Source: a virus
Reading direction: 5' to 3' (one strand)
DNA: 32,762 bases
IMG/VR virus record: IMGVR_UViG_3300005613_000250
Span: 1-32,762 of that record
The stretch's first letter is position 1. Each line of letters begins with the position of its first letter. The notes beneath the pieces are model-generated. The model made no database searches, had not been told where the DNA came from, and saw nothing but the letters and a program-made list of their open reading frames with translations. Positions 1-32,762 of the stretch are shown here, one piece after another. Position numbers and translations under genes: made by a program.

Positions 1-41
1 AGCACGCCACCGGACCAGTGCGCACCAAGTCGCGAAGCATT
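1..41 (-). repeat. DGR variable repeat, second allele (partial)
   Basis: Bases 1-41 correspond to 32623-32663 of the full VR. They differ from it at bases 1, 2, 11, 13, 14, 20, 30 and 31. Seven of these eight sites are template adenines on the coding strand; base 31 is the exception. Encoded changes relative to the other allele include Leu to Arg, Asp to His, Val to Ser and Ser to Gly. Bases 32-140 are identical to 32654-32762. This is best read as a second population allele of the same VR at the point where the assembly opened. Confidence 0.85.
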
Positions 42-2267
42 TGGAGCATTATACTCAGAGCCGAAACCTTCTGTATTAGCATTCCAGCCACCTGTATTGT
101 ATGCACCACCTCGGTCTGCCGCCCAAATCCACAAGTTACCAGTGGCCTGCATAACGCCCCAGCGTGAAGTTCTTGATGCATCAAGTCCAGTATTACCTGG
201 GTCACTACCACGAGATGTTGCTTCAGTCACGCCATAACAAGCGGCCATAAACTCAGATTGTGTAAATGCACGTTTACCATAAACCGCTGCAATAGACATG
301 GCTTCAAACCAAGTCAAGCTACCGTAAGTTGTCGAACCATTTCCACCAAGTGCTGATGGAACAATAGGTGGTGTACTACCATCTGCAATAGGTTTCCCGT
401 AACTTGACGTCCCGTTTACATCTGGGTTGTTATTTAAGAAATAAATATCTGACCAAAACGTACCTGCAACACAAGTCATTCCACGAGGGTCATCACAAGC
501 AGGTCTATACTTTAAATCCCAAAATGAATACTCGTTAATCTGTGCAGTTGAGTTACCACCTGACTGAGCTGCTGCATTTCCACCAGGGGCATAGTGAAAA
601 CCACCAATCTTGGTTGAGCCTGTATTTGGTGGTGTTACAAAGTTATTTGTAGCTTGCACAGTTCCATTAGGGTTAGCCCATATTGCATAATCAGTGCCAG
701 TTGAAGTTGTTGGCATTGATACTACTGTACCTGATGATATAGATAAAACAGAACCATCAACCAATACATAAATTTGCTGACTAGTCGATACTGTAAAGTT
801 ACCTGTCTTGGTAAATGCAGGAATAGATGAATTTGTTTTAATTAATTTTTGCGACATTGAAGCAGGCAATAGTAATGGAAACTGGTCTGTACCATTATCC
901 CCAACTTTAACCAACCTACCTGCTGTGGTGTCTGTTGATGATTGTGTACGACCCTCTGAGCCATATGTGCTATCAATCTCAGCTTTAGTGTAGTGGTCAG
1001 CTACTAAGAAAGCACCATAACCAATAAAGTCTACGTTATCGCCCACTGTAGCACCTGTAGTCAATGTAAAACCTGTACCACTTGATACGTCTACATCAAC
1101 ACCATTAACTAACTTAACACCATTCAAGTAGACATCTGCAAAACCTGCATCATATCCACCTGTTACGCTAAAGGCTGTTTGACCTGCTGTTGCTGTGTAG
1201 CTTTGACGTTTAGATGTACCATTAACTGTTGAACCTGCTGCTGTCCATAACGAACCATCATATACTCGCATCTCATTAAGAGTAGTGTCAAAGTATAAGT
1301 CACCAGCATCTAAGTTAGTTGTAGGTGCTGTTGCTAATGCTCCGTGGTAGATGTCTTGGAAGCTAGATAGTGATGCTGCTGCATTAGTTTCTGATGTACT
1401 TGCGTTGCTTGCTGATGTACTAGCTGCACTAGCAGAGCTTGAAGCACTGTTAGCTGCTGTATAGGCATCTGCTGCACTATTAGATGCTGCTGTTGCTTGT
1501 GTTGTAGCTGTACTAGCTGAACCTGCTGCTGCCGTAGCTAAGTTACTTGCATTTGTTTCACTTGTAGCCGCATTAGTAGCTGATGTACTTGCTTCACTTG
1601 CTTTTGTAGTCGCAATACCAGCTTGAGTTGTTGCAGTAGATGCTGAGTTACTAGCTGATGTTGCTGATGCTTCAGCATTTACTTCACTGACCGATGCTTC
1701 ACCAGCTTTAGCGATTGCCACCAACTCACTAGCTCTTGCTGAGTTTGCATAGCTTAGTGCATTTTGTACGTTTTGCGGAATAGTATCATCATTAATTAAT
1801 GCGTTACCATCAGCATTCCATCGCAAATATTGGTCGCCTTGCGGGTCAGGCAAGATAACGCTTGTACCTTGAACTGATTCATTTAATCGCAATGAAAGCT
1901 CAACCTTAGTCGCTACGTCCATTGACAAATATGTTTGATAGTTTTGGTCAATGTTTAAAGCTGCTGATGATAAATCACCGTTAAGCTGATACTCTGTTTC
2001 TCTTAATACTGGTAACTCTCGTAAGATTACAATCTGGTCATTGTTGGTTGCACCACTATTTAAAGTAATTACACCACCGTTATCACCGTTAATTGTTACT
2101 GTATAGTCTGTAACTAAAGCAAGTGGAGTATCTGTTGACGGTGCGCCTGCTTGTGACTGGTAAACTTTAATGTCTGAATCTTTATAAATCTTAAATAAAA
2201 AATCAAACTGGGTTTGTCCAGCACTGGCAACATACTCAATCCTGCCTGGCTCTGTATTAAATGCCAT
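1..2267 (-). CDS. DGR-diversified tail fibre, N-terminal and central part (runs off the left edge)
   Basis: This is a minus-strand frame that opens with ATG at 2267 behind GAGGTG and stays open to base 1. The N-terminus (MAFNTEPGRIEYVASAGQ, then QFDFLFKIYKDSDIKVYQ) matches the T7 gp17 tail-fibre attachment domain (PF03906 type). Residues of about 175-300 are a low-complexity Ala/Ser/Thr linker, probably coiled coil. From about residue 555 comes a formylglycine-generating-enzyme/C-type-lectin-like domain (SLTWFEAMSIAAVYGKRAF, then ATGNLWIWAADRGG), the usual carrier of DGR variable repeats. Bases 1-140 repeat 32623-32762, so the gene continues at 32526-32622. Together they make 787 codons plus a stop. 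The fibre should bind the virion tail at its N-terminus and the host receptor at its C-terminus. The gene overlaps the preceding ejection-protein gene by 11 bases. The family calls are from motif reading; the frame and the overlap are directly visible. Confidence 0.9.
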   Translation of the reverse strand, partial: MAFNTEPGRIEYVASAGQTQFDFLFKIYKDSDIKVYQSQAGAPSTDTPLALVTDYTVTINGDNGGVITLNSGATNNDQIVILRELPVLRETEYQLNGDLSSAALNIDQNYQTYLSMDVATKVELSLRLNESVQGTSVILPDPQGDQYLRWNADGNALINDDTIPQNVQNALSYANSARASELVAIAKAGEASVSEVNAEASATSASNSASTATTQAGIATTKASEASTSATNAATSETNASNLATAAAGSASTATTQATAASNSAADAYTAANSASSSASAASTSASNASTSETNAAASLSSFQDIYHGALATAPTTNLDAGDLYFDTTLNEMRVYDGSLWTAAGSTVNGTSKRQSYTATAGQTAFSVTGGYDAGFADVYLNGVKLVNGVDVDVSSGTGFTLTTGATVGDNVDFIGYGAFLVADHYTKAEIDSTYGSEGRTQSSTDTTAGRLVKVGDNGTDQFPLLLPASMSQKLIKTNSSIPAFTKTGNFTVSTSQQIYVLVDGSVLSISSGTVVSMPTTSTGTDYAIWANPNGTVQATNNFVTPPNTGSTKIGGFHYAPGGNAAAQSGGNSTAQINEYSFWDLKYRPACDDPRGMTCVAGTFWSDIYFLNNNPDVNGTSSYGKPIADGSTPPIVPSALGGNGSTTYGSLTWFEAMSIAAVYGKRAFTQSEFMAACYGVTEATSRGSDPGNTGLDASRTSRWGVMQATGNLWIWAADRGGAYNTGGWNANTEGFGSEYNAPNASRLGAHWSGGV

Positions 2268-5100
2268 TGCGTTCACCTCGTTTTATCATTTTTAGCTTCT
2301 CCACTTGTTCAGCTATCTCAATATTATCTTCTAGGAAATTTCTTCTAGCTATATCATCGTACTTGCGCTGAATGCTTTTAATATAATTTCGTCTAGCTTC
2401 ATCTGTCATTTTACTATAAGTATATGAATTAATGGTATATTCTATCGCTTCGTAGAATGTTCTTCCTGCAATAGTAACTCTTGTTCTTGATTCCTGGATA
2501 AGCTCATTGTGCTTGCTAGCCTTTAATCTAACGCCACCAATAGTACGGCCTATCTGTGTAATAGGAATCTGACCAATGCTTTCTGTAACTCTTAATATTT
2601 CTAGCTTGACTTTATTAGTTGTCTTATATTGCTCTTTCCAAATACCCAGAATGTGGTCGTATTTAACTCCGTTACCAAATATATCTAAACGCTCTGGTAA
2701 ATTCTCTGACATGGCTAACATATTTTTTGCTATGTCTTCCGATACTGTTTCACTAATGCGAATTGTATCGTCATTAAACTTTGTTAAATCTCTACGCAAG
2801 CCTGAAAACGGTACGGTACTCGCAACATAGTTTCTGGCCCATCGCTCAAATGATTCACCACCTCTAGTCAATGCCGTCATTGCATCTTGTAAACCAACCA
2901 TAAACGTTTTATCTAATACGTTATTAGTTAAACCTAAGATAACTGATGTAATCATTTTGTCTGTTTCTAACGCTTCTTCACGGTAGTCTGCACGCTGGAT
3001 AACATCTTTTTGCATTGCGGCAATATCTGCTGCTGCACCAAAGATAAAACTAAACGGCTCTAGTCTGTCATAACTTACATAGCTTACTGTGCCGTCTGAG
3101 TTATCAAACTTAAATGAGCGGGCCTTTACACCTGCTAATCTCCATGCGTCACGAGTAGCTTTATCTTGTGGCTCTGAACCTGTAATTTGACCGTTATATG
3201 CCATAGAGTAGAATGAAACAGCTAGTGCTGTACCTGTTGCAAGTCTTGAACGTGCTAACTGCCCTCTAGCTCCACCTGCAATTAAATCAGCTCTAATGTT
3301 TGCATTAATCAATCCTAGTGGTGAGCGCTCCAGGAATGCTTGCGTTACCAGATTCATCGGTGTGCGGATAAACGGTACAATCCATCTACCTGCTGGTAGC
3401 TCTTGGAAAAATGCCGATGCCTTTCTAGTAAAGCTGGTATCTGTTTGGAATACTGCACGCTTACTAAATTCTACTGCAACGTCCATCATTTGCGGTGTAG
3501 GGTTTTCGATTAAGTCTTGCAAATACGCCTTTGCTTCGTCTGCTGTTTTATCACCACTGCGCTCTGCTTGTCGGGCCATTCTAAATGCTTGCTCATAGAT
3601 AGACTGATGTTCACCTAGTACACGCATAAATCCATCAGCACCACCCATTACTCGCTCTGTTGGTACACGAATAACTGAACCCATCATGTCTGCTGCTCTA
3701 CCTAACGGACTTGCTTCGTCAAAACCAAATGCCTTAGATGAAATAGCTTCTGTCTGTACTTCTAACTTAGAGCTGCCTGCTGTGCCTGTCATGCCGCTGT
3801 ACTGCTCACCTGTCTTAGCTACTTTTATTGCTGCGTGCATTGCTTCTTGTAATACACTAATCTGTGCAAAGCCTGCACCTAACACTTCATCTACTGCAAT
3901 GTAATCTGCTTCGTTAGGCATTTCTTTGTTAAATGGGTTGCGGCCCATCAAAGCACCAACAGCTAAATCTACACGGTGCATACCAATTTGTAGCGCACCG
4001 CCTGTGGTGTTTACTATTTGCGTCTTAATACCAGAAAGAATTGAGTTAATCCACACTTCATGCAAAGCGTTACCAATTCTCTGAATAGCACCTGGGCGTG
4101 TAGCTTCGATTGCCTGCGATACACCACCCACTGTGCTAGTATTGTTAATTGTTTCTGCGATACGGTTAATATCCATACCCGCTTCAATATGTGCAAGCGT
4201 ATCTGTAAATGACATATCAACTTCAGTCTTCAAGCCAAACGCACGCATAGCACGACCAGCTTCAGCTCTTACACCCATAAATGAATCATACACTTCAATA
4301 TGTTCTGCGTAAGCCTTTGAAAACTCTATCTTTTCTGACGGTGATGCGTCTTCATTGCCTGCAACATTTTTAGCTAGCTTTTTAAGTTTAAGCGCTGACT
4401 GTGTAAGATATGACTTCATAAGCATAACTGTTTCAGCATTAGCCGCTTCACCTGGTAAGCGCTTCTTCCACATATCAATCTGCTCATTACCACGCAAACC
4501 TAAGTCGCTTGCTAACGAGTTAAGCTCTTTATCAGATAGCACGCCTGATTCATCGCCACGTCTTTGTGCCATAATGCTAGGTCTATTTTGTTGTGCAACC
4601 TTAGCTAATGTCTGAACAATATCCTGGCCCTCAAATGTGTTAGGGTTAATGTGGATAGGGTCGTCCATCATGTAATCAGGGTCAATAATTAAATCTGACT
4701 GAATAGCTTCTGCTTTAGTTGCTAGTGACGGACCATTGTTAATAATTTCGTCAATACGCCCTGACTTTGGTGTAATGTCAGGTGCATAGTCATCAATGTT
4801 TACAGTTTGTAATTTTGGCTCTGCTGTGCCTTGTGGTGCTGTTTTAATTTCTGGCTGTTCAAAGTCTTCAGCTTTAGGTGTTTCAATTGGCTCTGGCTGT
4901 ACTGGCGGCTCAATTTCTTGTATGCCTGACTCTGTACCTACATCAATTTTATCTTGACCAATGACTTCTTCAGTTACAGCATCAGCTCCTATTAACTCCT
5001 TCTTAGGCTCAATAGGCTGCTGGATAACCTCTTTTGTCTTTGGCTCTTGACCAATTAACTCACTGCCAATCTTCTTACCGAGTTCTTCAATCTTTGACAT
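2257..5100 (-). CDS. Large internal virion (ejection) protein, 947 residues
   Basis: ATG 5100 overlaps the preceding stop by 14 bases. The first 110 residues are Pro/Glu/Ile-rich and disordered (QPIEPKKELIGADAVTEEVI), probably the part threaded first. The body is helical: WINSILSGIKTQIVNTTGGA near 350, GGADGFMRVLGEHQSIYEQA, LPAGRWIVPFIRTPMNLVTQ, then SYDRLEPFSFIFGAAADIAA near 676. These segments recur in large ejection proteins of podoviruses and in polyvalent-protein domains of the LPD38 type. No transglycosylase motif was found. The role in building the ejection channel is inferred from position next to the fibre gene. Confidence 0.7.
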   Translation of the reverse strand: MSKIEELGKKIGSELIGQEPKTKEVIQQPIEPKKELIGADAVTEEVIGQDKIDVGTESGIQEIEPPVQPEPIETPKAEDFEQPEIKTAPQGTAEPKLQTVNIDDYAPDITPKSGRIDEIINNGPSLATKAEAIQSDLIIDPDYMMDDPIHINPNTFEGQDIVQTLAKVAQQNRPSIMAQRRGDESGVLSDKELNSLASDLGLRGNEQIDMWKKRLPGEAANAETVMLMKSYLTQSALKLKKLAKNVAGNEDASPSEKIEFSKAYAEHIEVYDSFMGVRAEAGRAMRAFGLKTEVDMSFTDTLAHIEAGMDINRIAETINNTSTVGGVSQAIEATRPGAIQRIGNALHEVWINSILSGIKTQIVNTTGGALQIGMHRVDLAVGALMGRNPFNKEMPNEADYIAVDEVLGAGFAQISVLQEAMHAAIKVAKTGEQYSGMTGTAGSSKLEVQTEAISSKAFGFDEASPLGRAADMMGSVIRVPTERVMGGADGFMRVLGEHQSIYEQAFRMARQAERSGDKTADEAKAYLQDLIENPTPQMMDVAVEFSKRAVFQTDTSFTRKASAFFQELPAGRWIVPFIRTPMNLVTQAFLERSPLGLINANIRADLIAGGARGQLARSRLATGTALAVSFYSMAYNGQITGSEPQDKATRDAWRLAGVKARSFKFDNSDGTVSYVSYDRLEPFSFIFGAAADIAAMQKDVIQRADYREEALETDKMITSVILGLTNNVLDKTFMVGLQDAMTALTRGGESFERWARNYVASTVPFSGLRRDLTKFNDDTIRISETVSEDIAKNMLAMSENLPERLDIFGNGVKYDHILGIWKEQYKTTNKVKLEILRVTESIGQIPITQIGRTIGGVRLKASKHNELIQESRTRVTIAGRTFYEAIEYTINSYTYSKMTDEARRNYIKSIQRKYDDIARRNFLEDNIEIAEQVEKLKMIKRGERNGI

Positions 5101-29611: not shown

Positions 29612-30529
29612 TTATAACTCCGCATCAAGTGATACTTTACAACCTGTGTCACTTCGCCAAAAACCGCTTGTTCCTGTACTAAACTGAAATTCCATCATAG
29701 TTGAACCATTTAGAGAAGCTAATGATATGTTTTGTGTAGAGTAAGTTCCGCCAGAAAACACTATCCCTGCGCCATTAAGTATAGAAACGCTAGGAATTAC
29801 ACGCATATGTGCTACATATTGCATATGACCATAAGCATTAGGTGACCAAGGCATTGGGGAGGCATACCCAGTGATACCATTATCATGGTCAATTAAGTTC
29901 TGATAATACCTCTGACACAAAGCCAACTCTTCACCATAACTTCTATACTCAAAGTCAGTAGCTTGTGAGCCTAGTTCTAGTTGGACATCCTTAATGCTGA
30001 CATAATCGCTAGATGTAAGATTTACATTAGCTGATTGATACCCATCTAATCCCACAGTAAATCTTAAGAGTGTAAGTCCGCTAGATTCTATTGTGGCAGT
30101 TATTTTTAATTGTTCCCAATCACTGTTTCCAGAATGTGTGTCTGTTTCTGTGTACCATTGAGTATTTGAATCAATAAGAAGTCTTGCGTTTGGGTTATTG
30201 GACTTAACCATCGCGGAAAAGGTAATGGTTTTACCGTGGTATTTCTCTGGAAACTCAACTATTTGACCAACACGGGCAGTACCGTTACCACTGCCTGTTA
30301 CGGTGATTTGCATATTTCCATTACTATCTTTAGAAAATGTTGCTCCACCTACACCTGCCGTGTATTGTTTCCATCGGTCTGCACTTCCGTATCCATTAGC
30401 AATAATAGAACTATTACCCCTCTGCCATACATCAAACCCGCCATTAATAATCAGGTTCTTACGTCCTGCTAAGATACGCTCTGTGGTATTACCACTAGCA
30501 ACATCTGCTAATTCCCTAGCTTGGCTCAT
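29612..30529 (-). CDS. Second tail fibre / carbohydrate-binding virion protein
   Basis: 305 residues behind GGAGGGT. The N-terminus (ELADVASGNTTERILAGRKN, then LIINGGFDVWQRG) and the DRW segment are common in phage fibre proteins that carry a beta-sandwich carbohydrate-binding module. Residues of about 35-190 look like that sandwich, closing with SIKDVQLELGSQATDFEYRS, followed by the YGEELALCQRYYQ motif shared by many fibre tips. The last 90 residues are beta-rich and end in a Trp/Gly segment. There is no T7 gp17 attachment domain, so it may attach to the main fibre or baseplate hub, or be a separate spike. It sits between two assembly-like genes. It has no VR-like segment, so it is not an evident DGR target. 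Confidence 0.65.
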   Translation of the reverse strand: MSQARELADVASGNTTERILAGRKNLIINGGFDVWQRGNSSIIANGYGSADRWKQYTAGVGGATFSKDSNGNMQITVTGSGNGTARVGQIVEFPEKYHGKTITFSAMVKSNNPNARLLIDSNTQWYTETDTHSGNSDWEQLKITATIESSGLTLLRFTVGLDGYQSANVNLTSSDYVSIKDVQLELGSQATDFEYRSYGEELALCQRYYQNLIDHDNGITGYASPMPWSPNAYGHMQYVAHMRVIPSVSILNGAGIVFSGGTYSTQNISLASLNGSTMMEFQFSTGTSGFWRSDTGCKVSLDAEL

Positions 30530-30921
30530 ACGTTACCCTCCAATAAGTTAATTAGTGTTCTAGCATCTTCACGCTTAGATTTAAGCTCTGCTTGACGTTC
30601 TTCTGTTAAGGTAGCGTACTTATCAACCGTAAAGTAAAGGTCTGTTGATGCTAGATAGGATTTAGCTTCAGATACCTTTTCTTGAGCTTCATGGTCAACA
30701 AAAACATAATTAGGTAGAATAGGTTGCTCAATTGGTTCAAAGTCTGCACGAGTAAACCCATACTGTTCAATTAGTTCGTTGCTTTCATCTGCAACCCATT
30801 TACCCAGGTTATCATCTTTTCTTATATTAAACAATGAGCCTTTTAGTTTATCTAAAAAATGTACATATTCATCTGTACCTTTTAGTGTATCTAAGTCTTT
30901 TTTTGTGTTAATTATTGTCAT
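30526..30921 (-). CDS. Tail-fibre-assembly-like protein, copy 1
   Basis: A 131-residue acidic protein with GGAG seven to eight bases before ATG 30921. The C-terminal half (EKVSEAKSYLASTDLYFTV, then a charged helix ending in LINLLEGNV) is the pattern of phage tail fibre assembly/chaperone proteins, with the E-A-K-x-Y-L-x-S-T-D-W/L segment. A second gene at 29261-29608 has the same C-terminal plan, so the two look like paralogues on either side of the second fibre gene. Its stop overlaps the next start as ATGA. Role inferred: folding or attachment of one of the two fibres. A minor structural role is also possible. Confidence 0.55.
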   Translation of the reverse strand: MTIINTKKDLDTLKGTDEYVHFLDKLKGSLFNIRKDDNLGKWVADESNELIEQYGFTRADFEPIEQPILPNYVFVDHEAQEKVSEAKSYLASTDLYFTVDKYATLTEERQAELKSKREDARTLINLLEGNV

Positions 30922-30922
30922 T

Positions 30923-31891
30923 TTAAATCTCCAGTTCGAGTTTTACTTTTAAGTTGTGTGCGTTGCTCCATTTAACATGACCTAACCAAGATGCTTTAAA
31001 CTTTCGCAGTGCCTCTAAATCATTTTGCCTTGTGTAGCTTTTTATCTTTTTCTTTGCTCGTTGCACAGAATCTTTACGAATGAGTTTATAATCTCTCCAT
31101 ATCCGATATCCAAGAAAGTTAATTCCTCGGATTGTGTTACTAGTTTCCCAGTGACTTAAACTCATACTCATTTCATCTAAAGAAAACTTTTCAATCTTCT
31201 TTTGCAACTCTCTAAGCTCCTCTATGGAATTGCCCAGTATAACCACATCATCCATGTACCTTGCCCAGTCGCGTAAACCTAGTTCATAGAACAAAAACTT
31301 ATCAAGTATATTCCCATAAATATTAGCAGACAACTGGCTGGTAAGCCACCCTATCTTTACTCCAACACCATCGCCTAAAATCAGCCTGAGAAGATTTAAT
31401 GTTTTTTTACACTTAATCTTCTTTTCAATTTCTTGCATTAGCCTAGATATTACAATAGATGCAAAATATTTACTGTAGTCTGTCTTTAGAAAGAACTGAT
31501 AGTTTTCTTTTCGTAGCTTACTTTGTATAAACTTAACGCCGCCATGAGTTCCTTTACCTTCTCTGCAAGCATAACTGTTTGGTAAGAATGTGTTTTCAAA
31601 TATGGGCGATATTAGATTGCATAGTGCGTGTTGCACTAATCTATCTCTAAACTCAAGGGCTTCTATTGCCCTTTCTTTTGGCTCATATACAAAAAACTTT
31701 CTGCTTGGCTTTAAAGCATACTCCCCGCTAATCAATTCTTTTTGAATTTGTAGAAGGTTGTACTCTGCATATTCTTTGAATCTTAAATAACCCACAGTTG
31801 CTTTTTTACCCTTAGAGGTTTTTCTATAAGCCTCCCTTAGATTATCCATGTCGGTTATTTTGTCAAATAAATTTCCGTACCTTTTTGGCAT
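30923..31891 (-). CDS. DGR reverse transcriptase
   Basis: A 322-residue reverse transcriptase that makes error-prone cDNA from TR. I chose ATG 31891 because AAAGGTGG lies ten bases upstream; a TTG seven codons earlier is less likely. Motifs in order: the N-terminal PKRYGNLFDKI typical of retron/DGR/group II RTs, FRDRLVQHAL near 85, LKTDYSKYF with catalytic Asp at about 138, IGWLTSQLSAN at 180-190, YMDD at 212-215, and NFLGYRI near 262. The (I/L/V)GxxxSQ form of motif 4, instead of QGxxxSP, is the DGR signature and is linked to adenine infidelity. The length fits DGR RTs and there is no maturase or endonuclease domain. One base separates its stop from the next ATG (30921), so it is cotranscribed with fibre-assembly genes. 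Confidence 0.95.
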   Translation of the reverse strand: MPKRYGNLFDKITDMDNLREAYRKTSKGKKATVGYLRFKEYAEYNLLQIQKELISGEYALKPSRKFFVYEPKERAIEALEFRDRLVQHALCNLISPIFENTFLPNSYACREGKGTHGGVKFIQSKLRKENYQFFLKTDYSKYFASIVISRLMQEIEKKIKCKKTLNLLRLILGDGVGVKIGWLTSQLSANIYGNILDKFLFYELGLRDWARYMDDVVILGNSIEELRELQKKIEKFSLDEMSMSLSHWETSNTIRGINFLGYRIWRDYKLIRKDSVQRAKKKIKSYTRQNDLEALRKFKASWLGHVKWSNAHNLKVKLELEI

Positions 31892-32029
31892 AATGTCGGC
31901 ACCACCTTTCAATTAATTACTTGGTGTTCTACCGAACCTATTAGTGTGTTCCCCTAGGGAGGATAAGAACGGCTGACCACAAGTGGTCGGGAGATAATGC
32001 CGTAGCGATTACCTACCGAGTAAATCGTC
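31892..32029 (-). ncRNA. TR-to-RT spacer, structured 3' part of the DGR template RNA
   Basis: These 138 bases between TR and the RT start have no convincing frame. In the Bordetella DGR the equivalent spacer is needed for cDNA priming and Avd-RT binding. Visible inverted repeats include GACCA/TGGTC with loop CTTG at 31975-31988. Around it, 31969-31973 pairs with 31999-32003 (five base pairs). There is also TCCC/GGGA at 31950-31960 and GTTC/GAAC with loop TACC near 31926-31937. The end carries the RT ribosome site AAAGGTGG. Function is inferred by analogy; the pairings are read by eye. Confidence 0.5.
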
Positions 32030-32149
32030 GTCACAGCGCAACCGCAGCGAGATGTTGTTGTTCGAGTTGGAAGCTGAGTTGTTCCAGTTCGAAGAACGTG
32101 AACCAGCATTGGAGCCGTTGTTCCAGTTCGCACCAAGTAGCGAAGCATT
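32030..32149 (-). repeat. DGR template repeat (TR)
   Basis: This is the non-coding template between avd and the RT gene, 120 bases and gap-free against VR. Read in the VR frame on the minus strand it holds ten AAC codons in the segment GANWNNGSNAG...NWNNSASNSNNN, where the VR has diverse residues. That is the hallmark of a TR. Every A in this frame sits where substitution cannot produce a stop codon (AAC, AAT, ATC, CTA, TCA, GAC). The IMH* end (plus 32030-32050) is identical to the VR. A 64-codon frame across this region is only a by-product of the repeat and is not annotated as a gene. Confidence 0.93.
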
Positions 32150-32157
32150 GCCCATTC

Positions 32158-32508
32158 TTACCCCTGTGATTTCTTGCTCTTAATCCATGCGCCAAGTATC
32201 GAGCCTGCTTCAGCCATTAAGGTTTGAGCAGTTTGTTCTTGATGCTTGGTCATACATTTCTTAGTCACAAGAAACCGCATCCAGTAACGCAGTGTTGCAA
32301 ACTGCGCATCAATTAAATATAACTTACTTACTTGCCCTGTCTTGCCTGCAACAATCATTTGTGATGGAGCAGAAAGTAAATCCTCTAAAATCATGTTTCG
32401 TGCAATTGCGTGTTTTCTAGGCATGCTTTGCAGTATTGGATAAAGATAGTGAATTAGTTTTTCGTACTTCTCCACTATCAGCATTTGATTATTGGTGTCT
32501 TTAATCAT
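32158..32508 (-). CDS. avd: DGR accessory variability determinant (Avd)
   Basis: This 116-residue basic, helical protein lies between VR and TR, exactly where Avd sits in classical DGRs. The pattern fits the bAvd family four-helix bundle. It has a helix with LYPILQSMPRKHAIARNMI (family: hypho-Pro-Arg/Lys-x-x-Arg), a second with LYLIDAQFATLRYWMRFL (family: LR-hydrophobic-R), and the C-terminal EAGSILGAWIKSKK (family EIGrmlGgWik). Family members form a positively charged pentameric barrel that binds the RT and TR RNA and is required for mutagenic retrohoming. ATG 32508 follows the fibre stop by 17 bases with only a weak GAG-type ribosome site. The stop at 32160-32158 lies eight bases before TR begins, so avd and TR share one transcript. 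The call rests on motif and position. Confidence 0.88.
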   Translation of the reverse strand: MIKDTNNQMLIVEKYEKLIHYLYPILQSMPRKHAIARNMILEDLLSAPSQMIVAGKTGQVSKLYLIDAQFATLRYWMRFLVTKKCMTKHQEQTAQTLMAEAGSILGAWIKSKKSQG

Positions 32509-32525
32509 ACACTCGCTTTCGCTCG

Positions 32526-32762
32526 TTAATCAAGTTGCAGGTGGTCACAGCGCAACCGCAGCGAGATGACGTTGGTCGAGCTCGAAGCTGAAAAGCCCCA
32601 GTACGAAGAACGAGAACCAGCGCTCACGCCACTGACCCAGTCCGCACCAAGGAGCGAAGCATTTGGAGCATTATACTCAGAGCCGAAACCTTCTGTATTA
32701 GCATTCCAGCCACCTGTATTGTATGCACCACCTCGGTCTGCCGCCCAAATCCACAAGTTACC
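32526..32762 (-). CDS. DGR-diversified tail fibre, C-terminal part (continuation of 1..2267)
   Basis: This open frame enters from the right edge and ends at TAA 32528-32526. It starts with GNLWIWAADRGGAYN, the same residues encoded around bases 95-140 at the other end of the window, so it is the same gene. The TTG that could be read as a start is the Leu of GNLW and is not a real start. The last 45 residues are the variable region: GADWVSGVSAGSRSSYWG, then a Ser-rich segment, then ISLRLRCDHLQLD. Trp/Gly/Arg spacing and a closing R-x-x-CD are typical of DGR targets with a C-type lectin fold. The variable residues should line the ligand-binding face. Stop and avd start are 17 bases apart. Known of the family: Mtd-like and FGE-like DGR targets. 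Inferred: receptor switching. Confidence 0.9.
   Translation of the reverse strand, partial: GNLWIWAADRGGAYNTGGWNANTEGFGSEYNAPNASLLGADWVSGVSAGSRSSYWGFSASSSTNVISLRLRCDHLQLD
32544..32663 (-). repeat. DGR variable repeat (VR), full copy
   Basis: This 120-base segment of the fibre gene aligns without gaps to the template repeat at 32030-32149 (constant offset 514). I count 23 substitutions. Sixteen fall where the coding-strand template has A (29 such positions) and seven at the other 91 positions. The last 20-odd coding-strand bases (plus 32544-32564) are identical and GC-rich, ending in TGCGCTGTGAC, and are the expected initiation-of-mutagenic-homing (IMH) region. Identity stops abruptly just past this point (VR CAC, TR GAC). 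Confidence 0.93.

What the first reader, a model, noticed from the sequence alone, without database searches (positions are those of the whole stretch)
1..140. The two ends of the window are two alleles of the same hypervariable fibre tip
Bases 1-140 match 32623-32762. I count eight mismatches, all in bases 1-31, followed by 109 identical bases. Seven of the eight fall on template adenines of the DGR. Joining the ends gives one in-frame 787-codon fibre gene. The simplest reading is a circular phage map of about 32,622 bp that an assembler could not close because the variable repeat differs between virions in the sample. That would be direct evidence that the DGR is active in the source population.
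Basis: partly seen in the sequence, partly recalled or inferred. Interest (0 to 1): 0.9.

Follow-up and report, generated by a model that had tools for sequence, protein, structure and literature searches.

The report
Unclosed circular phage with hypervariable fibre tip
The window is a complete or near-complete circular map of a small phage whose two ends are two versions of the same hypermutated tail-fibre tip; this is a well-known kind of system (as in Bordetella phage BPP-1), but the template copy in this genome matches neither version, so part of the mutating cassette seems to have been swapped.

Summary
Bases 1-140 match 32623-32762 with 8 mismatches, all in bases 1-31, then 109 identical bases; seven lie on template adenines. 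Joining the ends gives one in-frame fibre gene (787 codons from the ATG). The circular reading is well supported: relative L003 (4.8 kb) runs through the join unbroken (96% and 89% identity), L004 does the same, and complete phage MEP301 has the same gene order. The cassette is a BPP-1-type diversity-generating retroelement: Mtd-like fibre tip, Avd, TR, RT with IGxxxSQ and YMDD motifs. All five codons that differ between the ends align with BPP-1 template-adenine codons. Assembly breaks at the VR recur in this fibre family: 8 of 79 contigs end inside the VR against 1.3 expected; one relative has seven N calls in its VR, all on template adenines. One caveat is new: both alleles carry bases that the contig's own TR cannot supply but the TRs of L003/L004 can, and the TR lies in a recombined block. 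So the diversity is real, but "this DGR is active now" is not directly shown.

The parts
1..2276 (-). Tail-fibre gene, N-terminal part and most of the Mtd-like tip (ATG at 2267, in-frame GTG at 2276); continues across the circular join
   Evidence: ORF; Pfam mtd_2nd E 9e-14; PHROG tail protein E 2.8e-97; fused ORF open
32526..32762 (-). C-terminal end of the same fibre gene, ending in CDHLQLD and a stop
   Evidence: ORF open at the contig end; contiguous with the fibre in L003 and L004
1..41 (-). Partial VR, second allele
   Evidence: 8 differences from 32623-32663, 7 on TR adenines
32541..32663 (-). Variable repeat (VR), first allele
   Evidence: 80.5% identical to the TR; 16 of 30 TR adenines changed against 8 of 93 other bases (Fisher P 8e-7)
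32027..32149 (-). Template repeat (TR); lies in a recombined block and is not the direct template of VR bases 33-82
32158..32508 (-). avd, accessory protein of the DGR (116 aa)
   Evidence: Pfam bAvd E 5.5e-27; PHROG Avd E 6.9e-20
30923..31912 (-). DGR reverse transcriptase (329 aa), IGWLTSQ and YMDD motifs
   Evidence: Pfam RVT_1 E 1e-15; 52% identical to BPP-1 Brt; motifs
30526..30921 (-). 131-aa ORF that travels with the cassette, 93% identical in L003 (perhaps a fibre-assembly protein; inference)
   Evidence: no Pfam match
32511..32526 (-). Place of the post-VR hairpin; here CGAGC-GAAA-GCGAG, a weak stem
32623..32762 (.). Right-hand copy of the overlap that closes the circle (the other copy is 1-140)

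Best explanation
The window is one turn of a circular map (about 32,622 bp) of a small podovirus-type phage. The assembly was left open inside the VR of the tail-fibre gene because the VR sequence differs between genomes in the sample. The fibre gene ends in an Mtd-like tip whose VR is rewritten by a BPP-1-type DGR: TR RNA is copied by RT with Avd, errors arise at adenines, and the cDNA replaces the VR, changing receptor-facing residues and probably host range. Shown here: sequence anatomy, adenine bias, contiguity in relatives, two alleles. Inferred: RNA copying, homing and receptor switching, by homology to BPP-1. Both alleles were written from an L003-type TR rather than the TR now in the contig, which probably arrived by recombination together with avd and half of the RT, or was joined from another strain by the assembler.
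For: Exact overlap with differences only in the VR. L003 and L004 run through the join. MEP301 has the same order. Window TR/VR: 16 of 30 adenines changed against 8 of 93 other bases, P 8e-7. Allele-differing codons equal Mtd template-adenine codons 340, 344, 346, 347, 350. Solved Mtd structures match the tip profile at about E 1e-120. Eight of 79 fibre contigs end in the VR against 1.3 expected, P 7.5e-5. All seven N calls in the L021 VR lie on TR adenines.
Against: No reads were available. The contig's own TR does not match the VR alleles at non-adenine sites, so the alleles need not reflect current activity of this cassette. The post-VR hairpin, long-stemmed in BPP-1, is weak here.
Confidence: 0.92

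Rival explanations
1. The two ends come from different, already diverged strains (one perhaps carrying an L003-like cassette), and the contig is partly a strain chimera. The difference records past DGR activity, not current activity of the cassette shown. This rival concerns when and where the alleles arose, not the circular map.
For: The own TR cannot have written either allele in VR 33-82. The TR sits in a block about 20% diverged from L003/L004, while the outer fibre tip and the RT 3' half are 98-100% identical to L003. L003 and the same-species contig L091 come from one sample number. Around 31430-31550 the three sequences are nearly identical, long enough for a misjoin.
Against: The two alleles are identical over the 99 shared bases outside the VR. 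True recombination, or rewriting of only the VR 3' end by a new TR, explains the mosaic equally well.
Confidence: 0.35
2. The contig is a linear piece of a larger genome with two fibre genes or two VRs; the ends are different loci.
For: DGRs with two targets exist (PMC8008677). No reads were available.
Against: L003 and L004 have a single fibre running through the VR into avd, TR and RT. The two parts complete each other in frame. 99 of 99 bases outside the VR are identical.
Confidence: 0.04
3. The 140 bp is a physical terminal repeat of the packaged genome that diverged by DGR action on one copy.
For: Terminal repeats are common in phages of this size (general knowledge).
Against: The repeat would cut the fibre gene and start in the middle of the VR. 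Relatives show the region uninterrupted. Eight other contigs of this fibre family also end in the VR, on varied backbones.
Confidence: 0.02

Closest known systems
Bordetella phage BPP-1 DGR (mtd-VR-avd-TR-brt; AY029185)
   Same: Same gene order; RT 52% identical, fibre tip 46%, VR about 120-134 bp at the 3' end of the fibre gene, adenine-directed changes, allele-differing codons at the same Mtd positions.
   Different: Long repeat-rich fibre N-terminal part in place of the short Mtd N-terminus; unrelated smaller genome; weak post-VR hairpin; own TR mismatched to the VR at non-adenine sites.
Methylophilales phage MEP301 (MW452941)
   Same: Related backbone (capsid 43%, portal 29%, tail tubular proteins 30%) in the same order, with the fibre gene next to internal-virion genes.
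   Different: No RT among its annotated genes; a different fibre tip.
IMG/VR contigs L003 and L004 (3300005512_002441, 3300005613_000643)
   Same: Same cassette: RT 93% and 91%, fibre tip 96% and 94%.
   Different: Unrelated head genes: SPP1-type portal in L003, SU10/P22-type in L004, T7-type connector in the window.

Membership tests
Diversity-generating retroelement (DGR) | Reverse transcriptase with the DGR motifs ([ILV]GxxxSQ and YMDD) | tested here: met
   IGWLTSQ at 187 and YMDD at 219, as in BPP-1 Brt; RVT_1
Diversity-generating retroelement (DGR) | TR/VR pair with mismatches concentrated on TR adenines | tested here: met
   16 of 24 mismatches on adenines, P 8e-7. The share (67%) is below the at least 75% usual for DGRs (PMC8144416) because the own TR appears to have been replaced; L003 has 14 of 14 and L004 13 of 14
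Diversity-generating retroelement (DGR) | Accessory protein Avd | tested here: met
   bAvd E 5.5e-27
Diversity-generating retroelement (DGR) | VR in a C-type-lectin-like target domain | tested here: met
   By sequence: tip profile matches solved Mtd structures at about E 1e-120. Structure prediction was poor and not used
Diversity-generating retroelement (DGR) | Stable hairpin just after the VR (as in BPP-1) | tested here: inconclusive
   Same place and a GNAA loop, but only two predicted pairs; the form is conserved in close relatives
Diversity-generating retroelement (DGR) | Mutagenic homing observed | not testable with these tools
   Needs reads or experiment
Circular phage map | Ends contiguous in independent sequence | tested here: met
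   L003 and L004 run through the join; MEP301 synteny. The sample's own reads not tested

The most novel reading that the evidence does not exclude
The fibre tip plus DGR acts as a transferable host-range module among phages with unrelated head genes, and this genome was caught just after its template (with avd and half of the RT) was replaced: the VR still shows the old template in its 5' two thirds and the new one in its 3' end, as partial homing by the new TR would leave it.
Probability: 0.3. Interest if true: 0.6.

Novelty: new member of a known kind. Interest (0 to 1): 0.42.

Why it matters
Two frayed contig ends can be read as population diversity, and the signature is general: contig ends pile up in the VR across one fibre family. 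That offers a way to recognise complete phage genomes that circularity tests miss, and to spot diversified receptor-binding genes without reads. That VRs break assemblies is already stated in the literature (PMC8008677), and broad DGR activity in metagenomes is known (PMC8144416). The template swap, and the nearly identical cassette on three unrelated backbones, are the less familiar parts.

Tried and rejected
A genome-contig scan for a host or prophage gave only distant RTs. A scan with the internal-virion protein found no relative. The avd scan found no closer donor for the recombined block. Structure prediction of the tip was poor (pLDDT 46), so no fold search was made. TR/VR similarity as the cause of the contig break was rejected: their longest shared exact run is about 25 bases, far below the 109-base exact overlap of the ends. 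Relating the overlap to an assembler word length (99-109) is possible but was not used as evidence. N clusters elsewhere in L021 and in L032 showed no template and were set aside.

Full report
Observation. Bases 1-140 align without gaps to 32623-32762 with eight mismatches, all within bases 1-31, followed by 109 identical bases. On the minus strand the VR is 32541-32663 and the TR 32027-32149. Seven of the eight differences fall on TR adenines, and all fall in the 41 VR bases that both ends share. The fused gene is open in frame with either allele, 787 codons from the ATG at 2267.

Circularity. Three lines support the join. First, contig L003 matches window 860 to 3 and then 32762 to 30536 in one uninterrupted stretch at 96% and 89% identity, and L004 does the same at 93% and 86%. 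Second, in both relatives the fibre ORF runs through the VR to a stop followed by avd, TR and RT. Third, the complete phage MEP301 shares the backbone order and has its fibre gene beside the internal-virion genes as the circle predicts. Genes for packaging, head, tail, lysis and recombination are present, and the related phages listed with a homologous capsid are mostly 31.6-34.8 kb.

What the cassette is. The RT is 52% identical to BPP-1 Brt and carries the IGxxxSQ and YMDD motifs. Avd is recognised at E 5.5e-27. The fibre tip belongs to the Mtd family, and a profile of 21 related tips hits the solved Mtd structures at about E 1e-120. The five residues that differ between the two ends (749, 753, 755, 756, 759) align with Mtd 340, 344, 346, 347 and 350, all of them codons that contain TR adenines in BPP-1. 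The known mechanism, adenine-directed error-prone reverse transcription with homing of the cDNA into the VR, is therefore inferred with good support but was not observed here.

Family-level tests. Among 79 IMG/VR contigs with this fibre tip, eight end inside the VR, against 1.3 expected if ends were placed at random (simulated P 7.5e-5). In 43 relatives with an identifiable second copy, 605 of 1203 TR adenines are changed against 132 of 4126 other bases; a few of these copies are probably not true TRs, which inflates the second figure. In L021 the assembly has N at seven VR bases, and all seven lie on TR adenines.

The complication. The window's own TR is not the direct template of its VR alleles. 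At the non-adenine positions between VR bases 33 and 82 where the VR departs from its own TR (33, 37-39, 42, 72, 82), the VR base is present in the TR of L003, mostly also of L004. The left allele agrees at the four such sites it covers. The last 20 or so VR bases, by contrast, match the window's TR and not that of L003. Along the cassette the window is 98-100% identical to L003 in the outer fibre tip and in the RT 3' half, but about 80% from the VR 3' end through avd, TR and the RT 5' half, while L003 and L004 are about 97% identical there. Since L003 and L004 each have a TR and VR that differ almost only at adenines, the window is the likely recombinant. Three histories fit: recombination replaced this block; a new TR has since rewritten only the VR 3' end; or the assembler joined two strains. 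Current activity of this exact cassette is therefore not directly shown.

Cassette transfer. L003 has an SPP1-type portal, L004 an SU10/P22-type portal and the window a T7-type connector. TerL, portal and capsid of the window have no meaningful match in L004, and its portal none in L003, yet fibre tip, avd, TR, RT and the 131-aa ORF are about 80-100% identical in DNA. The fibre N-terminal part of L004 differs, so the exchange point there lies inside the fibre gene. L003 is a short contig, so a misjoin in it cannot be excluded. DGR transfer between unrelated organisms has been proposed (PMC8144416).

Verdict. This is a new member of a known kind: a BPP-1-type DGR phage with its circle left open at the VR. 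That VRs break assemblies is stated in PMC8008677. The interest lies in the clean demonstration, in the contig-end enrichment, and in the mismatch between template and target.

Noticed in passing
window 31590-32560 against L003 and L004: Mosaic block: VR 3' end, avd, TR and RT 5' half are about 20% diverged from L003/L004 while both flanks are 98-100% identical to L003; the TR was apparently replaced.
   Followed up: partly
L003, L004 and window 30526-32762 plus 1-942: Nearly the same fibre tip plus DGR cassette sits on three phage backbones with unrelated portals and head genes.
   Followed up: partly
L016, L023, L050, L052, L053, L054, L058, L078: Contigs of this fibre family end inside the VR far more often than expected (8 of 79 against 1.3).
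   Followed up: yes
L021 10810-10925: Seven N calls in the VR, every one over a TR adenine; population diversity frozen in an assembly.
   Followed up: yes
L056 10815-10925: Five N calls in the VR, four of them over adenines of the best nearby copy.
   Followed up: partly
window 32511-32526; L003, L004, L012-L018, L048: The hairpin after the VR has a GNAA loop but a weak stem with two adjacent G.A mismatches in this clade, where other relatives and BPP-1 have a GC-rich stem of 6-8 pairs; outer pairs change together in L012.
   Followed up: partly
L091: Same-species contig (98% DNA identity) with three internal stretches missing relative to the window, one cutting the capsid gene; probably assembly joins.
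   Followed up: no
window 29612-30529: A second fibre-like gene with a weak carbohydrate-binding-domain match lies downstream of the cassette.
   Followed up: no
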